Shown: positions 23,086 to 44,210 of the stretch, in pieces | Position numbering within the stretch: position 1 is the stretch's first letter | Layout of the letters: every line of letters begins with the position of its first letter | DNA from: Aphrocallistes beatrix | Taxonomy: Eukaryota > Porifera > Hexactinellida > Sceptrulophora > Aphrocallistidae | Direction of reading: 5' to 3' | DNA: 64,000 nt | Assembly (NCBI GenBank): GCA_963281255.1 | Contig: OY725503.1 | Location: 3,844,001 to 3,908,000 of the forward strand | Notes under the pieces: generated by a model | Databases searched by the model: none | Told to the model about the DNA's origin: nothing | What the model saw: only the letters and a program-made list of their open reading frames with translations | Position numbers and translations under genes: made by a program

Positions 23086-23511
23086 CTAAATATTATTAAA
23101 TAGCGGCCAACTCGTTTGCTGTCTTCCGTTATATTGTCGCCATCCTAATTGATCGTTGGTGAACGGAGTTGCACTCATAGAGCTATACATGACTATCTCT
23201 CTGATAAGGTCTTCTCTTTCCTTTTCTAGTTGAGATCTTTTCTCTTTCAGTCTGTGACAGGCCGTGTTGTATCTTTTTTGCACCCGCCTCCTTCTTTTCA
23301 TGAAATCCGAATAAATAGTAGGGTCATTTTTGAATGTTTTTCGGATCTCCCTCAATGGCATATCATTAATTTCTTCATCTTCATAACGCGAATCTGGAGG
23401 GCCATTTTGAGATGATGATGGATTAAAAGGGTTTGGATCTTTCATTAATTCATCAAGGCTTACTCCTTCTCCACTAATATAGCTAAACTCCTTTTCAGTA
23501 TTGCACTCCAT
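23086..23511 (-). CDS. Small Maf-like divergent bZIP protein (bZIP-like 1)
   Basis: Intronless, 141 aa. A segment MPLREIRKTF precedes a basic region RRRRVQKRYNTACHRLKEKR and a short coiled coil (SQLEKEREDLIREI). The arrangement of a conserved RE-I/L block about 20 residues before an R-rich basic region, with Tyr four residues before the Cys, resembles the extended homology region plus basic region of Maf proteins. The otherwise invariant bZIP Asn (seven residues before Cys) is Gln here. The zipper has only about two heptads. I infer a DNA-binding regulator or a dimerisation partner. A TATAAATAG box lies 40-48 bp upstream of the ATG (23551-23559, minus strand). First of five such genes in 11.6 kb. 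Confidence 0.7.
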   Translation of the reverse strand: MECNTEKEFSYISGEGVSLDELMKDPNPFNPSSSQNGPPDSRYEDEEINDMPLREIRKTFKNDPTIYSDFMKRRRRVQKRYNTACHRLKEKRSQLEKEREDLIREIVMYSSMSATPFTNDQLGWRQYNGRQQTSWPLFNNI

Positions 23512-23550
23512 ATTCTGGAATTTGTATCTTCATTCGATACTCGTACGATA

Positions 23551-23559
23551 CTATTTATA
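23551..23559 (-). promoter_or_regulatory. TATA box of bZIP-like 1
   Basis: TATAAATAG on the minus strand, 40-48 bp before the ATG at 23511. A TSS about 30 bp downstream would leave a very short 5' UTR. The same box recurs before all five bZIP-like genes. Confidence 0.6.
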
Positions 23560-23970
23560 CTAAAAAGTTTCAATCTATTCTAATCATTAAAAGGGCCAGT
23601 TATCCAAGTATTTTATTGAATCATATTTTGGATTTTTAGGTTGTCTTGGAAATGACAGCGGTTTTTTACAGCTTTTTTATTTTTAGATTTGAATTCCCTA
23701 ATCTGAGCCACTAATAATTGGGAATCGTCTTGAGTCAAAGTCGTCAATTTTTAACAACTTGTATTGACGTAAAGTAAATGTCGAGGCGAACAAAATATTT
23801 CATTCTTTAGCAAAATCAATTTTTACTACTCACTGTTCCAATGATTTAGCTATCTCAGTTTTTTAAGATGGTAATACTAATGTTGAAATTTTATATACAC
23901 GACCTAACCTGTTGTGAGGGTTGAAATCTTAAACCTCATACTTACAATATAAAAAGTATTTGAAGAGTAT

Positions 23971-24464
23971 CGCTGGCTACTAATTAGGTTACGGTCAATT
24001 ATTACACTTCCTTGTTACATCGTACGCCCAATGATCATTGACCCAAAGACAGCACATGACCCCACAATGGCTACATAAAACTTTAAACGAACACAATTTG
24101 TTATTCGTGTATCAAATGTCAACAGCTAATCCTCTTATCCTAACTTGTTTATCTGTAAAAGTGATTACGATTTGTTTACAGAGATTAACTGATACAGTGC
24201 TTCTTTTGAAGCTAAACATGCTTATATTTTATGACGTCTTAGGATTGTGTCTAGAGATAGCGTAACTTATAATTTTTAATTGATAGTCCTGATAAGTGGG
24301 TAGAGGTATTTCCACATATAATTGGGATACACAGTAATTATGTTGTTATCTACTTGTGTAATGTAATTAGATATAGATTTGGTTTCGTTCAATTAGTATG
24401 GGGTGACGAGATTAAATTGATATCATCAGCGAAGTAATGTAATAGAGCAAAAACTCAAAATGCA
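23971..24464. other. Spacer, no gene seen
   Basis: AT-rich spacer beyond the duplicated upstream segment of bZIP-like 1. A 75-codon plus-strand open frame at 24038-24265 has no domain-like features and is not supported. Confidence 0.5.
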
Positions 24465-24605
24465 GAGTTCGCGTATTAGCAACTCCCCTATTAACATAAT
24501 ATTGTTCTATTAGCAACCAATTTTCAGATGCAGATTTTGTCAATTCTCTTCCCCTATTAATAACTTAGCAAAACCAGAGTTGCTAATAAGCTAATTCCAC
24601 TATAG
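24465..24605. mobile_element. Decayed relative of the 18055-18195 MITE
   Basis: It shares the internal order ATTAGCAAC, ATTAGCAACCAATTTTCAG, GATTTTGT and the right end GAGTTGCTAATAAG...ATTCCACTAT with the element at 18055-18195. The right end is intact; the left terminal repeat is degraded. No coding capacity. Confidence 0.65.
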
Positions 24606-24835
24606 ACTTTCTTTTGTCGACGACACGATCGAAGTTTCTTTCTCTCCTGCTTCAGAAATTAGAGACCGGACATTATGATATGCAGTAATAGTAATAAATA
24701 ACTTATAATAGAACAATGCAGTAATTTTTATACAATTAGTAACAAATATAGTTCCGCATTAATTATTTGCCGCTGCTGTCGCTTTTGCTTGGCCGATCTG
24801 TTATGATATGTCCTATTGGAGAATATTATAGTTTA

Positions 24836-25102
24836 TTATTTACTGGGATCCATTTTTTGCTGCTTATTAATCTCTCTACATTTTTCTTTCCATTCCTTGA
24901 GTTCTTTTAACAGGTCATCTTTTTGTTCCTGTAGAGTTTTCTTTTTCTTGTTTAGCCTGCAAATTTGAGTAGTTAGCCTCTTCTGTTCTCTTCTCCTTTC
25001 TTCGATGGGGTAATTTGAAGAATACATTTTTTTAATTCTTTTTGGTGACAATTTTAGCCAGGTTTGTCTTTTTTCTATACATTGTTTGCTCAATCTACCC
25101 AT
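24836..25102 (-). CDS. Small divergent bZIP-like protein (bZIP-like 2)
   Basis: Intronless, 88 aa. The basic region is ERRREQKRLTTQICRLNKKKK, running directly into a short zipper (LQEQKDDLLKELKEW). The family Cys-Arg pair is kept, but the invariant Asn position is Lys. There is no transactivation domain beyond about 35 N-terminal residues rich in Lys/Arg. TATAAATAG lies at 25173-25181 on the minus strand, 71-79 bp before the ATG. Closest in its basic region to bZIP-like 3 (RREQKRLTT versus RKEQKRLIT). It could act as a homodimer or as a dominant-negative partner of a full bZIP; function unknown. Confidence 0.6.
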   Translation of the reverse strand: MGRLSKQCIEKRQTWLKLSPKRIKKMYSSNYPIEERRREQKRLTTQICRLNKKKKTLQEQKDDLLKELKEWKEKCREINKQQKMDPSK

Positions 25103-25172
25103 CTTGAATTCGAATTTCAGCTTTTATGGATATAACCGACAGATCACTAAATGAATTAGTTCCTATTTATTT

Positions 25173-25181
25173 CTATTTATA
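25173..25181 (-). promoter_or_regulatory. TATA box of bZIP-like 2
   Basis: TATAAATAG on the minus strand, 71-79 bp before the start codon at 25102. Identical to the box before bZIP-like 1. Confidence 0.55.
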
Positions 25182-25693
25182 CGAATCGGTTTAAGTAATT
25201 CTTAGATTGCGCTCTTGGGGGGGGGGGAATTCTGGATACATTAAAACTGCTACATACCTCTATTTTATAAAAAAAAGAAAAGATGGGTAATTTTTGACCA
25301 TGGCAAGTTGATTTTATTTTATTCATTAAAGGCTACACTTTCCTAGCAAGTTTAAAGGTATTTTCCAGGATGTGATCACATAATTATTGTTGACCTGATA
25401 GGATGTAGCCTAAAGTTCATAAATTTTGAAGCATTTTGACCTCTCACAGTGTAGTCGATTTAAACAGTAATCTTTTCGAATCTCAAATATCCCTAAGTTT
25501 GTGTCAGTATAAAACCAGAAATTGACTCAAATGCAGTAATTTATTTTGGTGATGTTCTTATATACAGAATAATAAATTCCTAAAAATTTATTCTTATTTT
25601 TGAAAAGTGTGCGAAGAAGGTAATGGAGTGAAATAGGATTTCAATGCTTTTAAACAGAACTTCGATAGCTGAAGCAATTGTAAATCACTAATG
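25182..25693. other. Spacer with a poly-G run
   Basis: About 0.5 kb of AT-rich spacer. A run of ten or eleven consecutive G lies at about 25218-25228, unusual in this AT-rich setting. No gene-like open frame. Confidence 0.5.
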
Positions 25694-26358
25694 CAGAGGC
25701 GTAGCCAGGGTGCAGCACAAGGCTGTGCCCACTAAAATTTCACAAATTAGCATTGGGTGCCGCAACCCTCTCACGGAATAGACTGGAAATGCCGCACAAC
25801 ATAAATGTCTAAATTTACATTATGAAGTTAAAGTTAGTTAACATCATCCTTCACGATCAATTGATTAAACGCCTTATTTAATTGTACTTATTGATATTTC
25901 AGTTTATTACTAAACAAATTCTAACGAGTTAAAGACTAGAATCGATATTAATTATTTTATTGTACATGGAATTTTGATTCTATTAATAAAGAACGCGGCC
26001 AGTTAGAGAAACATCGATTCGAATTTTTGCGACAAAGAGTGAGAGTGAAATATTATGCCATAATAAAGAGTAATAAGTACAAAACAAAAATAATAAACAA
26101 ATAAATGACAACATTGATCTCTATTCGCAGCACAAGCAGCAGCAGCGCCTCCATTTCTACAGCAATACTTTTAGAATTACAGTGAGGATAATTATAATTA
26201 TAATACAAATTAGTTGTTGACTGTACGAGGTCAAATGCGTAGCGCGGCAAAGACAAGCAAATAGTGTGGAATGGATGTAACAAATACGTGAGAATGGTGC
26301 GGCACAATTATTGCATTGAAGCCTTGCCCGCGTGCGCCGCGCCCTCGCTACGCTTCTG
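25694..26358. mobile_element. Inverted-repeat element whose right end supplies coding sequence to bZIP-like 3
   Basis: The left end reads CAGAGGCGTAGCCAGGGTGC. The reverse complement of the right end reads CAGAAGCGTAGCGAGGGCGC. The inverted similarity continues imperfectly for about 85 bp, including TGCCGCA and TCTCACG blocks in both arms. Total about 665 bp, no transposase frame. GC-rich ends in an AT-rich region support an insertion. I could not fix the target duplication, so the superfamily is open. The right arm overlaps the 3' end of the gene at 26308-26637. Confidence 0.6.
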
Positions 26359-26637
26359 TATGCTATTGCTTTTATAAATACTCTCAGGTTTTATTGCGTA
26401 TTTATTTATCTCTTCGATTAGCGACTTCTTCTCATTCTCCAGGTCTTTTTTCTCCTTCTCTAGCCTTTGTATATCCTTCTTGTTTTTCCTACAGTTTTTA
26501 GTGATGAGTCTCTTCTGTTCCTTTCTTCTTTCACCTATCAACACTTCATATTCATCGGGGAATCTGAATCTAAAATATTCTGGTTTGCGCCTTAGTAGAT
26601 CTGTTCTTTTTTTCTCCTGATATGGATTTAACTTCAT
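26308..26637 (-). CDS. Small divergent bZIP-like protein (bZIP-like 3)
   Basis: Intronless, 109 aa. The basic region is ERRKEQKRLITKNCRKNKK, followed by a clear leucine zipper with Leu every seven residues (RLEKEKKDLENEKKSLIEEI). Cys-Arg is kept; the invariant Asn is Lys. The N-terminal 40 residues (RRKPEYFRFRFPDEYEVL) are not recognised. The last 16 residues or so (from residue 94) and the stop codon lie within the right arm of the transposon at 25694-26358. The original C-terminus was therefore replaced by element sequence rich in Ala/Gly. A TATAAATAAG box lies at 26681-26690, 44-53 bp upstream. Confidence 0.65.
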   Translation of the reverse strand: MKLNPYQEKKRTDLLRRKPEYFRFRFPDEYEVLIGERRKEQKRLITKNCRKNKKDIQRLEKEKKDLENEKKSLIEEINKYAIKPESIYKSNSIQKRSEGAAHAGKASMQ

Positions 26638-26680
26638 TATATGCTCGATCTAATTATCTTACTAAATCATATATACGGTA

Positions 26681-26690
26681 CTTATTTATA
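26681..26690 (-). promoter_or_regulatory. TATA box of bZIP-like 3
   Basis: TATAAATAAG on the minus strand, 44-53 bp before the start codon at 26637, in the same place as for the sister genes. Confidence 0.55.
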
Positions 26691-27258
26691 GTCTCGACTG
26701 TGATACATATCAGAAAGTTCATACTGCTTCTTTACTTTCAAGTCATATGAATAAAAAATTTCTTGTCAAAAAATTACTTATCGAGTTCTCAAAATAGTTT
26801 CTGCCATTTCATTGCACCTTTCCTGATCCAGTATTTGTAATTTTGATCGAGTAACCATTTTCAGTCGAATTTGTCCCCTGATAATTAATGTATTGTAGTC
26901 ATTCTATTCGTAGCATGTGGACATTTTTGACACATCTAATGGACCAATTAGTCCTTTATTCTAAGGATGTTTATCAGGCACTAATTTAGCATATATGTGT
27001 ATTGATATTTTGTACCGGGATTGTAAATTTTTATAAATTGAGGTCAAAGAAATACTGACCCTGGTTTGCACAGTCCATCCTTTAATATACAGAGCCGTAG
27101 GCATGAGAATCATGTTGAGAGACTCCCATTGTATCAAATAATATATTTCTATTTGTTCAATGGTATCGATTGTCGGCTTTAATCTCAGTTCCTACTCCAA
27201 CAGGAATAGGTCATTGTATCCCCCGGGGCTGCTCCTTCTGGAAGAGTGTGATTCAGTG
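26691..27258. other. Spacer, no gene seen
   Basis: AT-rich spacer upstream of bZIP-like 3 up to the GC-rich element at 27259. No supported gene. Confidence 0.5.
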
Positions 27259-27657
27259 CATAGGCGCCAAGTGTGGGTACCTGGGGGGGAGCGCCCCCTC
27301 CTCCAGGTCTGGAGGCTGGGGGGGCGCCCCCCCCCGGTTTGGAGCCTGTGGGGGGCCCTGGTGCCGGGCAGTGGAGCAGTAGATGAAGCTGTGGTATGGC
27401 AGGACTTCACACAAACTTATAGGTTACAACTAAACCCTAAATGATGTTAATTGAGTGTAGATATATATATATCCCAATTACATTTTTATTCCACTATAGT
27501 CCGAGATGCAATACCGGTGGAAGAAGTGTGTAGACCTTAAAGGGGATTAGATTGAAAAATAGCCCACACATGGTCCCATCCCACAAGGATATCATACTTA
27601 GCCTACGAACTTTTCAGTCGACCCTCGTATTTTATTTTCCAAAACTTGGCGCCTATG
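27259..27657. mobile_element. GC-rich inverted-repeat element
   Basis: A perfect 14-bp inverted repeat, CATAGGCGCCAAGT at 27259-27272 and its complement at 27644-27657, bounds about 400 bp. The left third is extremely GC-rich with C-runs and G-runs (GGGGGGGAGCGCCCCCTCC type), sharply unlike the flanks, while the right part is AT-rich. I read it as a non-autonomous DNA element. Open frames across the GC-rich part are by-products of low stop density. No target duplication was identified. Confidence 0.55.
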
Positions 27658-29135
27658 TATATGTATCAGTGTGATGACTTAGCTTGATGTTATAATCGCA
27701 TGACGAGGACACGTGATTATACATCTGAATTATTGACTATTAATTGTAGACGGATGCTTTGTTAGTTGATGCTTAAACTCATTCGTAACATTACTTAGAA
27801 TATTATTTTGCGGATACACAGCAAATTTTTTCATTTGAATTTTTAATCTGTGGTAAATATTCTACTTTTGAATTTGTCAAAACGTGTGTACGTTTACGCT
27901 TGTCCTAATTGCTTCCTTTTGACCAGATTTGATTTCTGTCATAGCCATATGAATATTCAAATTAGAAATGTATCAAAATGCATTGTCTAATGGTGACATG
28001 GAGACCACCATGATGACATGAGACCAGCTGGTCAATGTAGACCATTGTGAATCGATTAATAACTAATCCCATATCTATTCTTTATAATCAGCTGATATGT
28101 AATCATCTGAAAGCATTCTTAATGAATTAGTGTACTGTTATCATTCATTAAGGCATCGATTCGAATCCATTGTCTCAGGGGGATTAAATCCAATTTGTAT
28201 CCAGATATATATTCAAGAGAGTTATCTACATATATCTAATTCAAAATATCATACACGAAATGGAAGTCCGTATGTGCTTGCATCTACCCCCCCAGTAGCG
28301 AATCCAGAAATTCATATGGGAGCGTCACTAGGGGGAGAGGTAGGTTTAGGAATCCTCTCCTCTTTTACCCTTCATTTGTGCCCTAAACTGACAAAACTGA
28401 CTTTTCTCCCCTCAAACTGATGGATCAACATAGACCATGTCTGTAATCTGACAACTATCAACAAAGTGGTATATTAATAAAATGATATGACCCTGTTGCT
28501 CTTTATGTGTAGTCTATTGTTTTATTTATTTCTGAAACGTATTCTTTGAGCTTTATTATCTGAAAGTCGGCAATAATTGTCAAAATCAAAATTTATTTTG
28601 TAAATAATGTCTCTTAACAAATATTATTTAGCAAGGATATGATGTTGTTTAATTTTAAGCTGCCGAGCCGAAATATTAGATGCGGGAGTTATTCCCGGTT
28701 TTAGTATGCTTTATTGTTAGTACTTTGTAATAACTATTTGTCACTTCCATTGGCTCATTGACTACGTACACATCGCATGGACATTGTTCAATTCATTTCC
28801 TTTCAGGGTACTTCCCACGTGCCACTTGATTGTACCATACCTCATTAATTCCCAGACAAAAAAGTGCTGATGCAATTTTCAAGGTGTATCACTGTCGAGG
28901 CTACGCTAAATGCTTTAGTTTATTTGGGTGTATATACTACTTGAAATATGCTTATTAATGGACACACAATTAATTAAATTTCTGACGATTCTATATCATA
29001 ATGTATACATCATAATTTAAGTTATTTAATCAGGTTGATACTGCATTGGTTGAAGCTGCTGTGTTGAGAATTCTGCAGGCCGCTTTTATGAATATAGTAT
29101 TTGTATTGTATTCTATTCTATTGTGTACTAACTAG
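27658..29135. other. Spacer, no gene seen
   Basis: About 1.5 kb of AT-rich spacer. The sequence around 28290-28340 (CAGTAGCGAATCCAGAAATT) looks like the edge of a degenerate repeat, but a matching second end was not found. The 96-codon frame at 28130-28420 spans it and is not supported. Confidence 0.5.
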
Positions 29136-29453
29136 TTAATCTATCATTAATAACTTCTCCAATTTTATGATTTCTACTTCGAGTGTTTCTTTCTCTTCTA
29201 AAAGTTTGGTTTTTTCCTCTTTTAATTGATTTTCTTCTTCTTTTTGCCTTGCGCGAAACTTTTCAACATTAATTCTGACTTGTTCTCTTCGTCTCAACAT
29301 TTTAAAATATTTTTTCTCGATTTCATTATATTGAAGTAGAAAATTGTCAAAGTCTTGTGATGTCATTTTTACTAGAGTCTCTGCTGTCTTTTTATCTGTT
29401 TTACAAGTCTTCAATGCAGATAATACAATTGACACATTCTCCCTAGTTGCCAT
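29136..29453 (-). CDS. Small divergent bZIP-like protein (bZIP-like 4)
   Basis: Intronless, 105 aa. An N-terminal 45-residue segment (SIVLSALKTCKTDKKTAETL), absent from the sisters, is followed by a basic region RRREQVRINVEKFRARQK. The zipper has four Leu at seven-residue spacing (QLKEEKTKLLEEKETLEVEI then KLEKLL). The canonical Asn is Val and the Cys is Phe, so DNA contacts must differ or be lost. A CAA-repeat tract lies immediately upstream of the ATG on the coding strand, and TATAAATAA lies at 29500-29508. The zipper is the longest of the five. Confidence 0.62.
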   Translation of the reverse strand: MATRENVSIVLSALKTCKTDKKTAETLVKMTSQDFDNFLLQYNEIEKKYFKMLRRREQVRINVEKFRARQKEEENQLKEEKTKLLEEKETLEVEIIKLEKLLMID

Positions 29454-29456
29454 TTT

Positions 29457-29485
29457 TGTTGTTGTTATTGTTGTTGTTGTTGTTT
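29457..29485 (-). repeat. CAA-repeat in the 5' leader of bZIP-like 4
   Basis: About 29 bp of GTT units on the plus strand, that is CAA/AAC on the coding strand, directly before the start codon. With the TATA box at 29500 this would make up much of a very short 5' UTR. Confidence 0.6.
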
Positions 29486-29499
29486 TCCTGTTGTCCTGT

Positions 29500-29508
29500 T
29501 TATTTATA
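29500..29508 (-). promoter_or_regulatory. TATA box of bZIP-like 4
   Basis: TATAAATAA on the minus strand, 47-55 bp before the start codon at 29453. Confidence 0.55.
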
Positions 29509-30164
29509 CTTTATTACTAATAATATGTTCACGCCCAATTCTTTACAACATGGAAAATCTCCCTAACTAAACGAGACAATTTTATTCTTTTAACCTGAAA
29601 GTCCAAACATGGATTACAATAAGTTAATTTTAATATGTCCATGAATCACTTTGCGTAAACTTTAGTTTATTTAATTTGAATACTATACAGGTGTAAGCAT
29701 GTAGGGATTGACCCTTTTAGTTTCACATATCATATGTTAGTTAAAATAATCCCAATATTTTGATAAATTAAGTAGATGAGTATATGAGTTCATCTCACTA
29801 AGCAAGAAATAGTGGGCAGAGCGATCCACCCTCTTCTCTAATTACCTATGTCGATCTTCAGCAGATTAAGTGCAACTTGTAGTGAGTTTATCTTACACTA
29901 CTTACAATCAGTATCAAATCAATCCCAAAATATATTTTAAATATTTTTTGTAATAAGGTACTTTTACAGTATAAAATGATTTTAAAATTAATAATTCTTG
30001 TACTAATAATGCTAATTTTACATACGTATTCTACTAGCATTATTTAGAGATGTGTTGAAGCTTTCATTTAATATCTTGTTTCATTAATGTGGACACAATA
30101 AGTGTTAAAATAGTTTCGATTTACTTAAAATTGTTAAATACACCTGTATTTTCCAAACGTCATA
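29509..30164. other. Divergent intergenic region
   Basis: About 0.65 kb between bZIP-like 4 (-) and LETM1 (+), AT-rich, holding the LETM1 promoter region. No gene or clear box for LETM1 seen. Confidence 0.5.
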
Positions 30165-33100
30165 ATGCTTTGGTTTAATAGCAGAATGTCTAGACTCATT
30201 TGGGGCAGGTATCGAGACAAATATTTGGAAATAGCACATACTCTATGGAATGGAAGGAACGCAAGTAGGTTGTACTCTAAATCGTCCAAAATTCCAACTC
30301 CCACCCCCCGATTACAAAGCTTAGTTCAAGTGAAGAGGAACCAAGTTTCCTTTTTTATCCCTGTAACCTGGGCGAGAAGCATACAGACTGAGCATCAGCC
30401 CACTAGCAGCATGCCTCCATTTCAACCTGGCAAGGGCGATATTTCTAAAAATCTAGCGCAAACGCCGCACCTATCAAACAAAGATGGATTGAGAGATCAG
30501 AATACTAGACTGTCCGAAACAAAGATAATACACACGCTTACGAATCCGGTGGCATCAGCTGATGCCAAGACGAAAGTAGTTGGCAAAAAGGAGGCATCGA
30601 AACCTAATCTTTGGACTCGAGTAAAAAATGAAACCCTTCATTACTATCATGGGTTTAAATTGTTTTTCTACGAAGTTAAGATTTCGTCTAAACTCTTTGT
30701 GAAAATTCTTAAAGGCCAGACGCTAACTCGCAGAGAAAGGAGGCAGTTTGAGCGAACGGTTGCAGATATTTTCAGATTAGTCCCTTTTTCAATATTTTTG
30801 ATTGTTCCGTTTATGGAATTTCTATTGCCCGTTGCCGTGAAGATTTTTCCAGGTTTGTTACCTTCAACATTTCAAACTATAAAGACGAAAGAAGAGAAAA
30901 GGAGAGCTGAATTGAAAATCAAATTGGAAATGTCGAAATTTCTGAGGAAAACAATGGCAGGTATATATTTCTATCTTCGATTACTTGTTGGTACAAGCAT
31001 CAGGGTAGGATAAAATGTTACCAAATTTTAATGGTTACACTCAACTTCTAATTATATATTTTCTGGTTTTTTTACAATGTGATATTGCATAACCGTAACT
31101 AGGTAACTATCACTCGCTTGTGCAATAGACCAATTTCAATTTACTAAGTAGGGGTTTGAACCATCTTTTTAATAATATGCCCTATTTACTACCTTTTCCA
31201 AAATGATGAATACAGTAAATTTTTTAAAAATTGCGTTTTTTTTTTTTTAGAAATAAGTGATGAGTCACATGAAAGGGAAGGGCCTAGTATCCAAGAGTTT
31301 GTAGAGTTTTTTGAAGCAATTCGAGAAAGAGGAGAGAGTGCGAATGTAGACGATGTTATTCGATTTTCACAGCTTTTTAGAGATGAATACACACTTGATA
31401 ACATGACACATGGTCAACTACAGGTATATATATATATTACCTAACATTTGTTAGAATTAATAGCTGACAATGTTGATGTCTAAATATTACTGTCCTTGAC
31501 TATCAGGGTCTCTAATTATTAACTTCGAGAACCAGAAGTTGCGGTTTGTACCCTCAGAATCCTAGGTGAACCGTTGGAAATACCTCTAGTTCACTTTCGA
31601 AAATGGTTTACTCAATGGATATAGCATAGACACAAACAACCCTCGGATTTATTAAATAAGAGATTTTGGTTTCTATCATCCAAGCTACGCCTTTCTAATA
31701 ATCCCATGGAAAAAGTAGCAACAATTTGGCTAGAAATGCTATTTTGAAAGAATAAAAAGTCAAGAAATTTTCAGTTTATTGACTTACTATTTAAATGGTT
31801 TCTAAAATTAATGGTTGAATAAAAATAGAGTAAATGTATAAGAAATACATTATGGTCCATTAACAATGGATATTTGAGTCGGGCAAAAATCAACATCCAA
31901 AAAGGATGGCAGCGGTGGGATTCGAACCCACGCCTCCGAAGAGAATGGTGCCTTAAACCATCGCCTTAGACCGCTCGGCCACGCTACCGATAAATTAAAA
32001 TTTACACATATCCCCTGAACTACTAAAACGCGATACTTGAAATATGTATCTGCGTATTTTTTGTATTGAAACTATGTATGTATAAAGAAGAAGATTGTGA
32101 GTATGCTTGCGTACTTTTTACTGACTTAGATATATTTCAGCCGAAATGGCAAGTCATCGCGGAATTTTTATATTTTTTGTTATTATTCGTGGTTGAAACT
32201 GTATTTAAAATTGAAATCAGAGTTCTATATTTTAGCATCTTCATATTTTACACCATCATAATATCCGATACTGACTCATCCACTAACTTTTCAATGTAAT
32301 TATCTAATACTATGCTTAGGCATTATGCAAACTCTTGACGCTCAACTCAGTTGGTACAAATGCGCTGCTACGTCTCCAACTCAACATGTGTCTAAGGAAA
32401 CTAAAAGCAGATGATAAACTAATAAAGAACGAGGGTATTGACAACATGACTGTGTCCGAGTTGCAGTCTGCCTGTCAGGCCCGTGGAATGAGAGCTGTGG
32501 GAATAAGCGAGAAGAAACTCAAAGATCAACTAATGTTGTGGCTAAACTTGCATTTAGACAAACAGGTAGACTTATAAGCTTTGTAAGTACTATGGATGCG
32601 TCATTTCTTGTTTGATTGTGTTGTTTCCAAGGTTCCCCCTTCGCTTTTACTGCTTACCCAAGCATTAAGTCTAAGGTCCCAGGTCCCCAATCCTGAGGGG
32701 CTGGGGAAAGCTCTTTCAGCACTCCCTGAAGAACTAATAGATCACTTAGAAGCGGAAGTTGCTAAAACTCCCAAATCTAAGCTGGAATCACTTAGAAATG
32801 AACAGGCCAAGATTGAAGAGGAGAAAGTTGAGGAGGAAACAGAAGATAAAGTGAAATTGGAGAAACAACAGGCTAGCCCCAAGCCTGGAGAAGAAGGTAA
32901 ATGTACTAATATCTATTAAAAATTCTATTTATCCATTCTTCCACTATACTTGTGTAGTTCCCCAAGATGTCCTTGAAAAGGTTACAAGCGTTGAAACGAA
33001 ACTAAAAGCTACACCGTTGGAAAGTGACAGCAGTTTATCAAAGGAAGATGTGAAAACCTTGTCAGAAGCGGTGGATAAGCTTGAAGATATGAGAGAGAGT

Positions 33101-33647
33101 ATTGCTGATATCAAAACTGAAATGGCACAGTCAGAAGAGCATCCGACAGAGAAATATATCGATGGTGCTGAAGTGGTAGAGCCACAGATTGTGTCGAAGG
33201 CTGAAAAGAGACTCACGAAAAAGGTAAAGTGCAATTCTTTTCTTTCACAAATACAGTCTGTGCAGTACAAACATGTGTCAGTATTGTATTCAGTAGAAAT
33301 ACTGTTACATTATATCCAAGGTTAACTCTATCATTGGGAAGCTCGAGGAACAAATCAATCAGTTGGAGAGCACAGCTCTGACTTCAGAGCACATTAGCAC
33401 ATCAGACCTAACTGATACTCTGCTAGCGCTGAAAGTTAGTCTCAGCCCAGCAAAGATTGAAGCAGTCATTAAAGCGATCGACACTGATTCAGATGGATTC
33501 ATTCTGAAAGATAATCTGCAGAAAATCTTTCAACTCATCGCATCTGAAGAGACTGACATCAGTACAGAGCATGTCAAGCAGATTACTGAGCTAATTGACC
33601 GTGAGGATCTCAGTGTTAAAATTACAGGGTCTGATGATCACGTTTGA
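30165..33647 (+). CDS. LETM1: Mitochondrial LETM1 (inner-membrane cation/proton exchange protein)
   Basis: Six exons, 30165-30960, 31251-31423, 32320-32565, 32632-32896, 32958-33223 and 33321-33647, 690 aa (human 739). LETM1 maintains mitochondrial K+/H+ and Ca2+ homeostasis. The N-terminus is basic and Ser/Arg-rich, as in a targeting peptide. The single inner-membrane segment is at about 208-235 ([19 protein letters not shown]). The ribosome-binding-like domain follows ([60 protein letters not shown]). After it come coiled coils with AEKRLTKK and a C-terminal EF-hand ([13 protein letters not shown]). Intron 2 (31424-32319) is the longest and carries a tRNA gene on the opposite strand. Confidence 0.95.
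31907..31988 (-). tRNA. tRNA-Leu (anticodon AAG)
   Basis: 82 nt including the discriminator A, without intron. The minus strand begins GGTAGCGTGGCCGAGCGGTC, contains the B box GGTTCGAATCC, and closes a seven-pair acceptor stem with GCTGCC. The long variable arm (TCTCTTCGGAG) is the class II type of tRNA-Leu. The anticodon loop TTAAGGC on stem ATGGT/ACCAT gives anticodon AAG (read as IAG), decoding CTN Leu codons. The gene lies in LETM1 intron 2, antisense to it. Confidence 0.95.
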
Positions 33648-34393
33648 AATCTTCCGCTTATTCTATATAGTTCTTGCACACACAGTGTTTTAACCTAGTT
33701 TCAACCCTTCCTAAGTAATAGTTAATAATCGTACTCATATCACTCATTTCAGTTTTTGAGTCAATACTGACTGTCCTGCTATCTCAGTGAGATTTGAAGA
33801 ATATAGATAGAGTTTATCATTTACAAATCACATCTGCTTTCTGTATTTAGATGTGTTATTGTATTAGTAGTTTCCGTTTGCATATTAAATATTGTTATAT
33901 TTCATTTTCACTGTTCAATAAAGGGATATCTTTATTGGCAAAATATTATTTTAATTTAAAATTGATTACTTTTTATTACAATAACGACTTCAAAATTATT
34001 GCTGTAAGAAAAACAAAATTTCCAATTTTTAGGGAGTAATTTCATCTCGATACATGAGTTAATCTACGGAATTAATATCCAAGCGAGACTAATTCGTTAC
34101 CAGTCTGTACCTTCTCACAATTATTTGGATTACATCATCTGTAATCTTGTCAGTAATCTTTAACTTGTTATTGCGATTAGCTACCCCAGCTTAGCGTGTT
34201 GTTGCGTGATGTGATGGAACGAGTGCATCTCTTGCTATCCAGTGCAGATCGAGTCTTGTTTTCCAAAAGAGAGATGTTATAATGGTGACGTGTCTGCTAT
34301 GCATTCGCATTGAATGTGAATTTGTGTTTATTTGCATTTTCCCCCAATTGGAGTATGTCCCGAATGTAATATCCAGGCGCCAATATGTACGAC
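33648..34393. other. Intergenic, no gene seen
   Basis: 3' flank of LETM1 and spacer to bZIP-like 5. AT-rich on the left, closer to even composition at 34130-34380. No supported open frame or RNA gene. Confidence 0.5.
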
Positions 34394-34402
34394 TATAAAA
34401 AG
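34394..34402 (+). promoter_or_regulatory. TATA box of bZIP-like 5
   Basis: TATAAAAAG, 38-46 bp before the ATG at 34440. A four-codon upstream ATG frame at 34410 would lie close to the expected TSS. Confidence 0.6.
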
Positions 34403-34439
34403 AGTTAAAATGAACTACGATTAACTTCGAGTTTTAAGG

Positions 34440-34712
34440 ATGTCTCACATGAAATTACCGTATCAATTTATAATTAGTCACAAACCTGCTTCCGAAGTAG
34501 GCAAACGCCTCAAAACATTGGGGTATTCTGAAGATGAAATTCGCCAAGCGCGAATTATACGACGAAAATACAAACTAAAAATGTATATTAAAGACTACCG
34601 TAAAAAACACAGGGAGGACATTCTCCAAATGAAACAAAAACATCTACAGCTCGAAAAAATAAAAACAGAATTGCTAAATGAAATAGCATTTTACAAAGAA
34701 AAGATTAAATAA
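34440..34712 (+). CDS. Small divergent bZIP-like protein (bZIP-like 5)
   Basis: Intronless, 90 aa, the only member on the plus strand. A 35-residue N-terminus (GYSEDEIRQARI) leads to a basic region RRKYKLKMYIKDYRKKHRED and a short coiled coil (LQMKQKHLQLEKIKTELLNEI). It keeps Tyr at the Maf-type position (as in bZIP-like 1), but the canonical Asn is Leu and the Cys is Tyr. The separation from the other members by LETM1 suggests that the family spread by local duplication and inversion. Function unknown; a DNA-binding or dimerising regulator is the best guess. Confidence 0.58.
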   Translation: MSHMKLPYQFIISHKPASEVGKRLKTLGYSEDEIRQARIIRRKYKLKMYIKDYRKKHREDILQMKQKHLQLEKIKTELLNEIAFYKEKIK

Positions 34713-37414: not shown

Positions 37415-40400
37415 ATGTTTGCATTTCTATTAATTACGCTCATCACAACTAACTGTCTCTACCATTGTGATTCATCTTCCCTTCGTTTCATCACTCGACC
37501 TCAAGACGTCTACACATACAACAGTTATGATGCTCGGTTTTATTGTGAAGCAGAAGGAGCTACGTATTATACATGGTTAAAGAAGTGGAAAACACCTACA
37601 GTCAGTAGATGGCAACCTAGTGGTAATATTTTTTATATGTAAACGAATGATGTTACGTACTTTAAATAAACTTATTTTAATTCGTAGAAATAATGTAGAA
37701 AAATTGCTAGATTTAGTCTATCTCCAAAAGGGCTAGAAACCGCTTATCTAATTTAATATTTAAAATCTTCTAGGTGGAACATTATTGTACAGATCTGTTA
37801 AAATAAAAGATGATAGAGCATCAATCATTTGTCAAGCTAACAACGACTCGTCAACAATTCAATCCATTGCTGTTCTTTATGTTTATCCTAAAGTTAATGC
37901 TACTCACCCTATCATAACGGATGAACCTGAAGACGTTACGGCAAATATTGGCACAGATGTCAGTTTTAAATGTACTTCTTTCGGTAAGTCATTTCAAACT
38001 CTAATAATTGTTCAGAAAATATACATTATTGATAGATTTATTTATCTAAATTAGGTATATTGGGAGATATTCGCTGGTTATTAGATGGCATAACACTTAT
38101 AACTTTGCCTAATTTCAGAGACATTTCCACGATCTCCAATGGTACCCACAACACGTCTACCCTCACGCTCTATAATGTAACTTCTCAGGAAGAAGGGGTT
38201 TATGTTTGCGAGGCTTTCGGAACTGAGAAAGCTAATAAAGGGTTTGATTATAGTAATGCGACTCTAACCATCGTTGGACCACCCATCATTGTAGACTCCC
38301 CTTTCGAGATAAACTATATAAATGATGGAGCTTCCCTTCACCTCGAGTGTCATTTTATGGGATCCCCTACCCCTAGTGTGACATGGTACGATGACAGTGA
38401 TAATGTGGTTAATGAGGGCTCTGTTTGGGAGTTAGAAAAGGTTGGAGCTGAGTTGGAAGGAGGGTATGTGTGTTTTGGTAATAACTCTTTGGGTGAAATC
38501 TTTACAAACAAATTCAGAGTGATAATACGCTTCAAACCAAAGATATACAGTACACAGACTGCTTTGAAGACTCTTCCTGTTGGAAGCAAACTTGAATTGT
38601 TCTGTAATGCCACAGGTGAGCTACGACATATTTAAAGCATAATGCTGATACCAATGTACTTTTATCATTAATCAATCCCACTTTGTTTTCTTAGGTCAGC
38701 CTTCACTTTCTATCTTTTGGCGCAAAGATAATATTCTTCTCAACGATACAGATCATATACGCATAGAGAATGGCACCCTGACTATTGAGCAGTTAAACAT
38801 GTCAGATGCTGGTACATACACCTGTATTGTTCAAAACTCAGTGGGTGTTACTAGCTCACTTGTCTCGCACCTCACAATAAGTCATCCACGCCCCTTAAAA
38901 CCGATCATAATCAGTGTGAATGATATTTTTTATGACAGAGCAACTTTAAAATGGAGTCAAGTTCCGTATGGTGATCCGGTTTTCAGTTATGATATAGTAG
39001 TTAAGGATTTTAATAATGAATACATTTACCCAAACCAGTCTATCCCTTTAACCGCTCTAACTACAATTAATGATAACTCATTCAAGCATATTATAAAAGG
39101 ATTGGTACCCTTCACTATCTACACTATTTCTATTCAAGCTCAGAACAATGCTGGTAAAAGTAGATTTTCAGAATTCGATCTATTCAGAACAAGTCCTTTT
39201 ATTCCTTCACCACCTACCATTTATTTACGAAATATAGCACCTTTTAGTGTGGAGATTGATTTTCGCATCCTAGACCAAAGGGATTTAAACGGTCCTTATG
39301 AAGGTGTGAACTTTACTGTCAGCTCTTTACAAAATGATTTCTCTAATACAACAGCAATTTTCAAGTCTGGAGCAAATCTAATAATCTCTCACACTCAATA
39401 CGGTCTTCTCCCATTCCATCGATATACCATCACTGCTAACAGCTATAACGGTGAATACTACAGTAACCGAACATCAGAAAAAAAGTTCACTACATCAGAA
39501 GATTCACCCAACTCGCCGCCTACTAATTTATACGTCAACTGCACATCACCTAGCATTTGTACTTTATCATGGAAAGCTCCTATACATTCCAATGGTATTA
39601 TTACATCTTACACACTCAAGCTTACTATAAACGATGCCAACCTGAGTGGGCCACATTTTGATCCTGTATCGGTCACAAGTGAATCCTACGTCGCAAAAGA
39701 TCTAAAGCCTTACTCTGTGTATTCTTGGAAGATATTTGCTTCTACAAAAGTAGGCCGCGGTCCTTCCATCATTCACAGATTCAAAACGTCCGAAGGGGTC
39801 CCTAGTAGCAGTCCTAAACTAGACGTGCGCACTGTTAACTCAACAGCGATCGCATTAGCATGGCAACCATTAACTGCATTGGAATTGAATGGTGTGTTTC
39901 ATTACTATCAAATAATCTACACTTACGTTGGTAGTTCAGGTCTGGTTGAGAAGGCACAAATAACGCAGGCTAATAAAATAGAACTCAACGATTTAACACC
40001 CTATACGAACTATGGATTTAGGATAAGAGTGAATGCTGGATTTGGTTACGGCCCTTCAAGCCTCATTCCCATATACAAAATTACCGCACCAGCCCTCCCT
40101 GAAGCAGTTGTAGGAAATCTAACTGCCACTTCTCACTCGCCAAGTTCGATACTTCTTCAATGGAATCCAGTACCTGAAGCTCTCATACACGCATCAACCG
40201 CGAATTACAAAGTAGAGATGAAGACAGGCGTGGAATGGAGCAGGATACAGCAGGTAATTTATCCAGCTAACCGGTACTTGATCAGTGGGCTACTGCCCTA
40301 CACTTTATACACTTTCAGAGTGCAGCTTTTTAATGAGATAGGATTTGCTCCGTTTTCAGAAGTTAGTACCACAACCCTGCAAACTGATCCAGGTGCACCA

Positions 40401-43400
40401 TCCATTACTGGATCCATTGGCAATGGAGATCCTCTGCGAATCAATCTAATCATCACTCCGACAAACTTAACTACTAATGTTATTCAGTACTTTGTAAAGG
40501 CTAACTCACTGGGAAATGCGACAGTGGAAACTTATTCGGTGTCCCCAAGCACTCATGATACAACTTACTTTTCCTACAATGCGACCAGATATATCAATTT
40601 CTACCAGTTTAGAGTTTTCGCAAAAACTAACATTGGAAATAGTAGTTCAGCCATTTTATTAATAGAAACTGGAGGGACAATGCCTAGTGAATCTCCAGAT
40701 GGTTTAGTCGCTCTCCCGCAATCATCTACCAGTGTTTATTTATCTTGGAATGAGATTCCTAGACAGTTTTTGAACGGACATTTAATCGGCTATCAGATAA
40801 GATACCGTTCCATTTCTCAAACAGAATGGACCTACTTGAACATGACACAATCAGATTACCGTCATGTAGTGAATCTTGAGATTTTCACCACGTATTCATT
40901 CCAAGTCGCTGGTGTTACTGTTGATTCTGGATCTTATTCACTATCTGCCTCGGAGCGTACTCTCCCAGACAGACCTGGAGTTGTGAAGAATGTGCGTCTA
41001 ATCAGGTCTGAATTCAAACTGTTAGAAATCGAATGGGACCAACCTGACAATCCGAATGGGATCATTTCAAGTTATCGAGTACGAGTGATTGAGGTGTACG
41101 CCAATATCTTTACTTCCTACTTGGTTAGGCAGAACAGAATTACGATAAATAAACTCAGTCCGTATACCAAATATACGATTTTAATAGCAGCAACGAATCA
41201 GATCTTGACAGGAAATTTTAGTTTACACTTCGATGCGATGACGGCTGAAGACACACCATCAAAACCCTATTTCTCACACGTCATCCGTAAAAGCAGACAA
41301 TTAACTGTATTCTGGCACTCTCCACAAGACCCGAATGGAATTATTCTAGATTATAAATTATCCTGTATCCGTCAATATTCGCGAATTATAAATAAAAGAA
41401 TGATCAAAGTATTGCACGAAACTGATGTACACACTTATTCCGCGACCTGCGAAGGACTTATTCCACACAGCGAATACAGGATCAAAATCTCTGCCAGAAA
41501 CTCTTTCGACTCAAATTGGAATTCCATGTTGACACAAACAGATTTCTTACCTCCTCTTCTCTCAAATATTACGTCATCACCTCAACTTGTAAACAACAAT
41601 AATAAACACTTATTCACTCTTCCGAAATATTCAGAGATACTTGGAAACATATCTTTTTATCTAGTCGTAGCGATAATATTCGATCCCATTTTAACAAGTG
41701 CGGATAATCTTACTACCAACTATTCGCTAACTGACCTGCAAGCGTATTCATCTATTTTTGACACCTCCCAACCTTACCCTTATATAGCTGCCAACCTCAC
41801 ACCCAGCGAGTATAGCGAATTCGAGCTTGGAGATGGAGAGATATATAGTGGCTTCGAGAATGTTGCATTGGCAAAAGGCTATGGTTACGCATTATACGTA
41901 CTGGCATGTGTGAAATCGATTAATGAGAAGGCCTACCTAGTTACAAGCAGTTCATTATCCCAGCCTATTATTATTTTAAGAGATACACCACTCTCAAATA
42001 ACTCTTTGGCTGTAATAGCCTCGATAGTTGGCTCCTCCACTGTATTCCTATGTATTCTCATAGGTCTGCTCTTTATATTAGTTTTCGTGTTCTGTGTTCG
42101 AGTTAGGTCTAAAAACTCTAAAGACTTGAACATTCCTTATACACGTTGCAACATTGAGTTGAATACAGTGCCATGGTCTGCTAATCTAGACTTCAAGACA
42201 ATCCCCAAAGGGAGCGATCCTATCACCTACTACCGTAGTGTGATCAATGACCCTCATTTGGATGCTAGGCCCCCTGTGCCAGCTTACATGCTACCCAAAA
42301 TCCTAGAAAATTTGCTGGAAAATGAGAAACAACGCCTCAGTGAAGAGTACACACATCTAACGCCAATAGACACCTCCACAACTAATACCGCTACCAATGA
42401 AGTCAATTCTAAGAAGAATCGCTATTTGAACATTCTGCCTTACGACCATAATAGAATCATGCTTAACAAGCCTGTCTCTGATTATATTAACGCAAGTTTC
42501 ATTGATAGCGCTGATAAGAAAAACGCCTACATAGCTACACAAGGCCCCACTGAAGTAACGTTGGAAGATTTCTGGCAGATGGTCTATGACCAGCATGTAG
42601 AGTGTCTAGTGATGATAACTAAGCTCGAAGAAAACGATGTTGAAAAGTGCATTCAGTATTGGCCTACTGATGGGACTAACTACTATGGGAAACAAGAGGT
42701 AACGCTTAACTCCACTGTGTTTTATTGTGACTACATAATACGAGAGCTCACGCTGAGTAGGATCGACTCGAAAGAGTCACGAGTCGTTTATCAATTCCAG
42801 TTCACATCATGGCCAGACCATAAAGTGCCCTCACACGCCTTTCCAATGTTAAACTTTATACAACGAGTCCGTCAAACCTTGCAAGCAAAACATGTCAGCA
42901 CGAATCATCCGCTACTAGTCCACTGCAGTGCCGGCGTAGGGAGGACAGGGACGTTTATCGTGCTTGATTCAATGATAAAACGAATGTTGAATGGAAAGGA
43001 AATTGACGTGTTTGGACAGGTTTCGTACTTACGAACTCAGAGAATGTTTATGGTTCAAGGGAAGGACCAATATCTGTTCATTTTCAAAGTTCTCGCGGAA
43101 TATTTCACCTCGCAGAAGACTATCATTCAACTCTCTGACATAGAACACATCTACTCATCTCTATCAATGCTCATTCCAGATACTCAAATAACGGGTCTTG
43201 ATTCTGAGTTTTTAAATCTTGAAATTGAATATGATGAAGAAAATTTCACGGCAGCAAATGCCAGTATTAACCAACAGAAAAATAGACAGACTCAGTTGGT
43301 CCCACTCGAAATTTCACGCGTTGTTCTGCCTATTCAGAACGAACAGTTCGGTTCTGACTATATTAACGCTAGTTTTATTGATGGTTATATGCATAAGCAG

Positions 43401-44210
43401 CAATTTATCGCCACGCAAACGCCATTTGGGGAAACAATTAGTGATTTTTGGCGAATGATCTGGCATTACAATTCTAACATAATCGTAATGCTAAACCCTG
43501 CATACAACGAACCCGATCCTTGCTACTTCCCTGAGAAATTACAGATGTATGATATCTATCAAATTGAGAAAACTTCTGAACGTTCCAACACAGATTATAT
43601 CTATCAACAATTTACAATGACGAATCTTAATTCAGGGGAAGTGAGGAATATAAGCCATTTCCAGCATTCATCTTTCTCAGGAGGAAGTGACTGCATATCA
43701 GCTAAAGCGCTGTTGTTACTCTGTCAAGAAATTGGCTATATTTATCGGTCTCTGATCCCTAATTGTATTGGCCCGATAACCGTGCATTGTAGAAACGGTA
43801 GTGGCACTACTGGCATGTTAATCGCTGTGATGAATTTAATGGAGGAATTGAAAGAATCGAAAAATATGAATATTTTCCAAACTGTGTATTATCTACGCTT
43901 ACAGCGGCCGTATATGGTAGAAACTGTGGAACAGTATCGAACTGTGTACGAAGCTATTTTGCAGCAAGCTATCACTCATATTGATTTAAACGCAAGCAAG
44001 TTGAAAGCGAGAGGTGTGAAAACTTCATTTTCTAATGAAATAACCCCGTCAACGAGTCCAGTCAAAATGTCAACATTCGCAAAGGTAGGCGGCTCGATCA
44101 GTTCATGGAGCAGTCTTCAGAACCGTCTTAGTTACACTAACTACCGTAGCAGTCAGATGTCTGCCACTTCCGCTTTCTCTAACCCTGATGAAGTGCTAGA
44201 AATATCTTAG
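37415..44210 (+). CDS. LAR-like receptor protein tyrosine phosphatase
   Basis: Four exons, 37415-37622, 37774-37983, 38055-38615 and 38695-44210, all introns phase 1, about 2164 aa. The last exon is 5.5 kb and holds nearly everything. Order: signal peptide (1-20), four Ig-like domains (Cys pairs such as FYCEAE/IICQAN and LFCNATG/YTCIVQN), about nine FN3 domains (about 390-1330), a transmembrane helix (about 1429-1455), and two phosphatase domains. D1 has KNRYLNILPYD, WPD and HCSAGVGRTG (about 1739), so it is active. In D2 the loop is HCRNGSGTTG, with the catalytic Arg lost and no WPD, so it is a pseudophosphatase. Type IIa receptors (LAR, PTPRD/S) control adhesion and axon guidance through the extracellular domains. 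Here the Ig/FN3 count is 4+9 rather than the usual 3+4 to 3+9. Confidence 0.9.

What the first reader, a model, noticed from the sequence alone, without database searches (positions are those of the whole stretch)
23086..34712. A cluster of five tiny bZIP-like genes, all missing the invariant Asn
Seen: five intronless genes (23086-23511-, 24836-25102-, 26308-26637-, 29136-29453-, 34440-34712+) encode proteins of 88-141 aa, each with a basic region of bZIP spacing followed by two to four Leu heptads. Known: bZIP DNA contacts use N-x7-R/K, with the Asn seven residues before the family Cys/Ser. Seen: that Asn is Gln, Lys, Lys, Val and Leu. Two members keep the Maf-type Tyr. Inference: a lineage-specific family, either reading a different site or working as dimer-poisoning partners. 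This is the best candidate here for an undescribed system.
Basis: partly seen in the sequence, partly recalled or inferred. Interest (0 to 1): 0.78.

Follow-up and report, generated by a model that had tools for sequence, protein, structure and literature searches.

The report
Tiny Maf-like genes lacking key asparagine
The five tiny genes belong to a large family of small, single-exon, Maf-like proteins spread over this animal's genome, and every small member that could be read has lost a residue that DNA-binding proteins of this class very rarely lose, which suggests that the animal has re-tooled an ancient gene switch.

Summary
The five ORFs are real family members. A profile built only from relatives elsewhere in the genome picks exactly these five of 363 window ORFs. 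They are outlying members of a genome-wide, tandemly duplicated family of small single-exon proteins derived from Maf: 110 Maf/CNC-like places, up to 98 of them small Maf-like (53 read, 45 not). The family profile matches MafB/MafG over the extended homology region (EHR) and bZIP (E about 1e-15). None of the 52 distinct small members read, the five included, keeps the base-reading Asn. The genome's 4 larger Mafs, 8 CNC-like and 6 of 6 other bZIPs with that column keep it. The rest of the Maf contact pattern and the charge are mostly kept, and 47 of 52 keep the zipper register. dN/dS is 0.04-0.64 in 28 of 29 measurable pairs. A TATA box lies upstream of 44 of 51 ATGs, all five window genes included, against 10% of random positions. 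Best reading: Maf-derived factors that still bind DNA with altered half-site recognition. Genes 1-3, with shifted register, may instead poison partners. Oomycetes are a parallel; eight searches aimed at it found no animal case.

The parts
23086..23511 (-). gene 1 (141 aa): degenerate Maf-like bZIP, Asn position Lys (or Gln), zipper register 16, extra N- and C-terminal tails
   Evidence: joins genes 2 and 3 with support 89/91
23553..23559 (-). TATA box TATAAAT, 48 nt before the ATG of gene 1
24836..25102 (-). gene 2 (88 aa): Asn position Lys, zipper register 16
25175..25181 (-). TATA box TATAAAT, 79 nt before the ATG of gene 2
26308..26637 (-). gene 3 (109 aa): Asn position Lys, zipper register 17; predicted two shorter helices then one long helix
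26684..26690 (-). TATA box TATAAAT, 53 nt before the ATG of gene 3 (a second TATATAT at 26669-26675)
29136..29453 (-). gene 4 (105 aa): Asn position Val, canonical register 18, four Leu heptads
29502..29508 (-). TATA box TATAAAT, 55 nt before the ATG of gene 4
34394..34400 (+). TATA box TATAAAA, 46 nt before the ATG of gene 5
34440..34712 (+). gene 5 (90 aa): Asn position Leu, Maf Tyr kept, canonical register 18, EHR-like helices before the basic helix

Best explanation
The five genes are outlying members of a large, tandemly duplicated family of single-exon, TATA-driven genes that arose from a Maf transcription factor in this animal's ancestry. The proteins are an EHR plus a basic region plus a short zipper with little else, as in small Mafs. 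Shown here by sequence: Maf ancestry, absence of Asn in every small member read, retention of most of the other Maf DNA-contact pattern, purifying selection in relatives, TATA boxes of their own. Inferred: the proteins dimerise and bind DNA; Arg-Arg, Lys, Tyr and the distal Arg still clamp the half-site, while replacement of Asn together with the neighbouring Ala and Cys/Ser positions changes which bases are read, differently in each subfamily; lacking an activation domain they act as homodimers (repressors) or as partners of the genome's Asn-bearing CNC-like and larger Maf proteins. The TATA box, missing introns and short leaders suggest sharply induced expression. Window genes 4 and 5 fit this directly; genes 1-3, whose basic region and zipper are out of canonical phase, may instead sequester partners.
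For: Maf ancestry: a profile of 36 relatives hits MafB 1.2e-15, MafG 4e-15 and Nrf2 8e-13 among PDB sequences, aligned to MafB without a gap through the basic region and zipper. Asn position: 0 of 52 small Maf-like (47 outside the window, 5 in it), against 4 of 4 larger Mafs, 8 of 8 CNC-like and 6 of 6 other bZIPs that have the column. Kept contacts among the 52: Arg at -5 in 51, Arg at -4 in 49 (Lys in 3), Lys at -1 in 42, Tyr at +3 in 43, Arg at +8 in 45; Ala at +4 only in 6; net charge of the basic region 9.0 against 8.75 in the larger Mafs; register 18 in 47, ties counted as 18. In MafG, Asn61 hydrogen-bonds dC12, Arg57 reads dG13* and Tyr64 lies by dC12 (PMC9756947, passages read), so the family keeps the Arg57 and Tyr64 equivalents and loses Asn61. 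dN/dS 0.04-0.64 in 28 of 29 pairs with measurable dS (15 of the 29 come from one cluster and 3 are between larger Mafs; pairs under 45% identity were not tested); lowest in the basic region, 0.25 pooled over 8 pairs. TATA box in 44 of 51 against 10.1% of 6600 random positions. AlphaFold: gene 5 pLDDT 91.9, short helices 8-11 and 17-26, then helix 31-89.
Against: No DNA-binding, dimerisation or expression data. Asn is among the most conserved bZIP residues, and its loss might abolish specific binding. Genes 1-3 have a shifted register. One pair has dN/dS 1.01. The regional dN/dS differences are modest and the 8 pairs are not all independent. Genes 2 and 3 have no AATAAA/ATTAAA within 300 nt downstream. 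Foldseek against PDB gave nothing useful for the gene 5 model (44 matches, none with E <= 0.001). 46 of 118 listed places could not be read. No other species was available, so lineage specificity is untested.
Confidence: 0.58

Rival explanations
1. Dimer-poisoning partners: the proteins pair through their zippers with the Asn-bearing Maf, CNC-like or other bZIPs and prevent specific DNA binding, like rice inhibitors of EmBP-1 or HBZ with many of its partners.
For: Asn absent in all 52; tiny proteins with little outside EHR and bZIP; register shifted by 1-2 residues in window genes 1, 2 and 3, which would put basic helix and zipper out of phase. Precedents: HBZ heterodimers often fail to bind DNA (PMC6623464, passages); substitution and heterodimer inhibition in rice (Nantel and Quatrano 1996, seen only as cited in PMC11214833, passages).
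Against: A poison needs no intact basic region, yet this is the part with the lowest dN/dS (0.25); the family keeps Arg-Arg, Lys, Tyr and Arg, full positive charge and, in 47 of 52, exact register. With small Mafs, HBZ still binds the MARE.
Confidence: 0.25
2. Diversification with no tight function per gene: a birth-and-death family under weak constraint whose members bind DNA loosely and are partly redundant.
For: Very diverged copies (19-53% identity to the first row of A1), recent tandem copies, one pair with dN/dS 1.01, a truncated zipper at C7:840162, one match with a stop inside (C6:1602466, not read).
Against: 28 of 29 measurable pairs have dN/dS of 0.64 or less; 108 of 109 genome matches have no stop inside; TATA boxes and A at -3 are enriched.
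Confidence: 0.1
3. The ORFs are exons of larger genes, pseudogenes or retrocopies.
For: Small size; no transcript data; no poly(A) signal within 300 nt after genes 2 and 3.
Against: TATA boxes of their own at -46 to -79 in all five; A at -3 of the ATG in 32 of 51 family genes and a poly(A) signal within 250 nt in 40 of 51 (controls 34% and 42%); purifying selection in relatives; in 7 of 10 compared pairs the homology reaches 86-308 nt upstream of the ATG, unlike retrocopies; in the other 3 it does not.
Confidence: 0.04

Closest known systems
Small Maf proteins (MafF, MafG, MafK)
   Same: Size, EHR plus basic plus zipper, Arg-Arg...Lys...Tyr...Arg contact pattern; profile match E = 4e-15 to MafG.
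   Different: Asn absent in 52 of 52, Ala at +4 kept in 6 of 52; dozens of genes rather than a few; no binding data.
Novel bZIP classes of oomycetes (Phytophthora C-R, V-R, R-R classes; Pibzp1)
   Same: Expanded bZIPs in which the conserved Asn is replaced (Cys, Arg, Val and others), predicted intact helices, mostly transcribed (PMC4046829: passages including the abstract, and section 6).
   Different: Those were compared with the PF00170 model and are in oomycetes; here the family is Maf-derived with an EHR, in an animal, with Met and Ser as commonest replacements and no Cys among the 52.
HBZ of HTLV-1 and mammalian CHOP
   Same: Natural bZIPs with aberrant basic regions that act through heterodimers (HBZ: passages; CHOP recalled, from no call).
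   Different: The HBZ basic region lacks the consensus motifs, whereas here most of the Maf pattern outside the Asn/Ala/Cys positions is kept.
CNC proteins (Nrf2, NF-E2, Skn-1)
   Same: Related ancillary helices before the basic region (PMC9756947, passages); profile matches Nrf2 at 8e-13.
   Different: The 8 CNC-like genes of this genome that were read keep Asn and Ala-Ala or Ser-Ala, and fall apart from the Maf-like group in the tree.

Membership tests
bZIP superfamily | Asn-x7-Arg/Lys in the basic region | tested here: not met
   Arg at +8 in 45 of 52 but Asn in 0 of 52; window genes Lys/Gln, Lys, Lys, Val, Leu
bZIP superfamily | Leu heptads in register with the basic region (18 residues from Asn position to first d Leu) | tested here: met
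   47 of 52, ties counted as 18; window genes 4 and 5 yes, genes 1-3 no (16, 16, 17)
Maf (PF03131) | Pfam bZIP_Maf above the gathering score | tested here: not met
   Window genes: best 20.5 bits against 22. Elsewhere in the genome it is met by most: 93 of 109 matches are over the cut-off, 4 of them only with their neighbours in the frame
Maf (PF03131) | Extended homology region before the basic region | tested here: met
   Family profile aligns to MafB from EHR through zipper; predicted helices before the basic helix in genes 5 and 3; weak by sequence in genes 1-4
Maf (PF03131) | Tyr three residues after the Asn position | tested here: met
   43 of 52 family rows; in the window clear only in gene 5
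Maf (PF03131) | Binding to MARE half-sites | not testable with these tools
   needs EMSA or SELEX
Oomycete Asn-substituted bZIP classes | Asn replaced in an otherwise intact bZIP | tested here: met
Oomycete Asn-substituted bZIP classes | Shared ancestry with the oomycete classes | not tested
   No oomycete sequence was compared; the Maf-type EHR and best PDB matches to MafB/MafG point to separate origin
Dominant-negative bZIPs (HBZ, CHOP type) | Degenerate basic region without the consensus contacts | tested here: not met
   Charge 9.0 against 8.75 and contact Args kept in the family; genes 1-3 have a shifted register

The most novel reading that the evidence does not exclude
An animal has dispensed with the near-invariant bZIP Asn across an entire family of up to 98 Maf-derived genes and replaced the base-reading triplet (Asn, Ala, Cys/Ser) by subfamily-specific sets (for example Met-Arg-Ser, Met-Asn-Gln, Ser-Thr-Ser/Cys, Val-Gly-Phe, Lys-Thr-Cys; rows), giving a set of differing half-site readers on one TATA-type promoter: a bZIP counterpart of the zinc-finger expansions.
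Probability: 0.35. Interest if true: 0.86.

Novelty: new variant of a known kind. Interest (0 to 1): 0.68.

Why it matters
In a survey of 896 bZIPs from 49 eukaryote genomes only three kinds of departure from the basic-region Asn and Arg were noted: Gly for Asn in Giardia, Cys for Asn in oomycetes and, for the Arg, Lys in a few plants (PMC4736632, section 7). A whole animal family without the Asn, but with most of the rest of the Maf DNA clamp kept, would suggest that bZIP recognition can move away from TGA half-sites within animals, and offers dozens of natural variants for working out a bZIP recognition code. It also warns that standard Pfam cut-offs can miss such genes: none of the five here passes.

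Tried and rejected
Foldseek of the gene 5 model against PDB gave no usable match, as a near-single helix offers little; VIA-align was not tried. A k-mer search upstream of 42 non-redundant genes found TATA-type words as the only strong signal; AGTGAAAC (6 genes against 0.8 expected) does not survive correction for 8754 words, and TRE, CRE, MARE half-site and ARE cores are not clearly enriched (4, 0, 4 and 17 of 42 against 2.3, 0.9, 8.3 and 15.1 expected). Animal genes are plain by my reading of the ORFs (Ig/FN3/receptor phosphatase, paired-type homeobox). No innexin match (but no control rang), one hedgehog-type signal domain and 19 homeodomain matches, with long single-exon frames, would suit a sponge, perhaps a glass sponge; this is inference only. 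Ten paper searches were run: eight aimed at bZIP or Maf expansions or at the Asn (one search used a term that matched nothing), one at the species and one at Maf structures. No listing or passage seen reports an Asn-less bZIP family in an animal; most listed papers were not opened, and the library holds open-licence papers only. The Oopsacas paper says it focused on bHLH and homeobox factors, and the word bZIP does not occur in its main text (passages); the Aphrocallistes paper has the word bZIP twice, once for an upregulated gene and once in the methods, with no such expansion in the passages seen.

Rows dropped before counts: one protein-identical copy (C15:2615755) from the 53 small Maf-like read; C9:3010305 (match to the EHR part only) and five conventional bZIPs from the genome count of 110; C2:978282, which lacks the Asn column, from the 7 other bZIPs; one row without ATG from the 52 in the TATA and start-codon counts. 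L022 (C1:270782, E = 0.145, one stop inside) was not taken as a member. Sorting into Maf-like and CNC-like was by eye on sequence and could lean on the Asn itself; the tree, whose root is arbitrary, puts 14 of 18 Asn rows (CNC-like and others) on one side with support 93/81 and the 4 Asn-bearing C18 Mafs inside the other side. In the register count ties were given to 18, which favours the canonical value. The 'other ORF' control for the TATA box (2 of 33) may include internal exons. The count of 98 is an upper estimate.
Full report
What was checked. The five ORFs are present exactly as described. Pfam sees them only below its cut-offs. The window is G000:C17:3844001-3908000 of a 100.5 Mb genome in 28 contigs. 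Its other genes are those of an animal: by my reading of the ORFs (names recalled, not searched) a DEAD-box helicase of the DDX46/PRP5 type, a LETM1-like gene, an ecdysoneless-like gene, a paired-type homeobox gene, tetraspanins and a long Ig/FN3 receptor phosphatase.

A genome-wide family. A bZIP_Maf search of the whole genome gave 109 matches at E <= 1, nearly all in open frames of about 95-195 aa, 93 of them over the Pfam cut-off. With seven further places from protein searches, three of them window genes 1-3, and after removing six rows (five conventional bZIPs and one partial match), 110 Maf/CNC-like places remain; 72 lie in clusters linked at 50 kb, against a random mean of 11.8 and a maximum of 28 in 500 simulations. 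Of the 72 read, 53 (52 distinct proteins, 5 from the window) are small Maf-like, 4 are larger Mafs (255-365 aa, one cluster on C18), 8 are CNC-like and 7 are other bZIPs. A profile of 36 small members, none from the window, matches MafB at 1.2e-15, MafG at 4e-15 and Nrf2 at 8e-13, with EHR and basic region aligned to MafB. The same profile picks out the five window ORFs, and only these, from 363.

The missing Asn. At the Asn column the 52 small members have Met 20, Ser 11, Val 7, Lys 6, Arg 3, Leu 2, Ile 1, Gln 1 and Gly 1: no Asn. The 4 larger Mafs, 8 CNC-like and 6 of 6 other bZIPs with the column have Asn. Meanwhile Arg -5 (51 of 52), Arg -4 (49), Lys -1 (42), Tyr +3 (43) and Arg +8 (45) are kept; Ala +4 (6 of 52) and the Cys/Ser position are diversified; charge is unchanged (9.0 against 8.75). 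In the Nrf2-MafG-DNA structure Asn61 binds dC12 directly, Arg57 reads dG13* and Tyr64 sits beside dC12 (PMC9756947, passages). The family thus keeps the clamp and changes the reading residues. In the tree the four Asn-bearing Mafs lie inside the Maf-like side and the Asn label needs two changes, so one or few losses followed by diversification are likely; few columns, long branches and an arbitrary root limit this.

Are they functional genes? Among pairs of at least 45% identity, 29 have a measurable dS; dN/dS is 0.04-0.64 in 28 and 1.01 in one (C1:12.16 Mb). Fifteen of the 29 come from one cluster and three are between larger Mafs. Pooled over eight pairs dN/dS is lowest in the basic region (0.25), then zipper 0.33, EHR 0.36, N-tail 0.38 and C-tail 0.50. 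A TATA box (TATAWAW) lies between -120 and -25 of the ATG in 44 of 51 genes, against 10.1% of 6600 random positions and 2 of 33 other ORFs of 150 aa or more. All five window genes have one, at -46 to -79. The ATG has A at -3 in 32 of 51 (control 34%), and a poly(A) signal follows within 250 nt in 40 of 51 (control 42%); of the window genes, 1, 4 and 5 have such a signal within 300 nt, 2 and 3 do not. In 7 of 10 compared pairs homology reaches 86-308 nt upstream of the ATG, so spread was by DNA duplication rather than by retrocopying, at least there. The selection evidence is from relatives; the window genes themselves are too diverged for a dN/dS estimate.

The window genes. Genes 1-3 group with C7:840162 (support 89/91); gene 4 pairs weakly with C13:2834835 (80/80, flagged as long branches meeting); gene 5 is unplaced. 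Genes 4 and 5 keep the canonical spacing of 18 from the Asn position to the first zipper Leu; genes 1-3 have 16, 16 and 17, three of only five exceptions among 52. AlphaFold gives gene 5 a pLDDT of 91.9 with short helices before one long helix, and gene 3 a pLDDT of 87.5 with helices 5-16 and 19-25 before helix 27-82; both agree with an EHR-like module before a bZIP helix. The models are monomers without DNA, and Foldseek of the gene 5 model found nothing useful.

Mechanism. Shown: Maf descent, absence of Asn in all small members read, kept clamp, selection in relatives, TATA boxes. Inferred: dimerisation, DNA binding with altered half-sites, inducible expression, lack of activation domain. 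For genes 1-3, sequestering of partners is as likely as altered DNA reading, because a shift of 1-2 residues turns the basic helix relative to the zipper (established bZIP geometry, recalled).

Compared with what is known. In oomycetes, bZIP classes with the Asn replaced by Cys, Arg, Val and others expanded likewise (PMC4046829: passages including the abstract, and section 6); a survey of 896 eukaryote bZIPs, with 18 animals sampled, found almost no departures (PMC4736632: passages, sections 7 and 15). The present family differs by its Maf origin, EHR, animal host, replacement residues and common TATA box. It looks like a set of small Mafs but should not be filed as canonical Maf, since the bZIP signature Asn was tested and is absent. 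No print record of such an animal family was seen in the eight searches aimed at it (listed under Tried and rejected).

Noticed in passing
L049:1654-2037 and L049:3125-3424 (C8:20689 and C8:22157): Two neighbouring members share zipper and C-tail without a single difference while their EHRs differ almost to saturation at silent sites: partial gene conversion or half-gene shuffling.
   Followed up: partly
C18:38730-54220 (L034, L035): Cluster of four larger Mafs (255-365 aa, open frames without introns, Asn kept), the likely nearest canonical relatives of the family.
   Followed up: partly
C13:20492, C13:27296, C13:3925756, C11:1015782, C9:146617, C1:443058, C1:444753, C1:451697: A second set of small CNC-like bZIPs (139-179 aa), 7 of 8 with a TATAWAW in -120 to -25, that all keep Asn; possible partners of the Asn-less family.
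   Followed up: partly
genome-wide, 60 clusters: Family clusters are somewhat enriched near contig ends: 12 of 60 within 200 kb against 4.8 expected (p 0.002), 17 against 9.6 within 400 kb, 25 against 14.3 within 600 kb; some contig lengths were estimated.
   Followed up: partly
C7:840162 (L010:1471-1674): Closest relative of window genes 2 and 3 has a truncated zipper (68 aa): pseudogene, unrecognised intron or short protein.
   Followed up: no
window 38649-44210: A single open frame of 1853 codons that reads as FN3 repeats and a tandem receptor phosphatase: unusually intron-poor for an animal (names by eye).
   Followed up: no
upstream of 6 of 42 family genes: AGTGAAAC in 6 genes against 0.8 expected; not significant after correction.
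   Followed up: no
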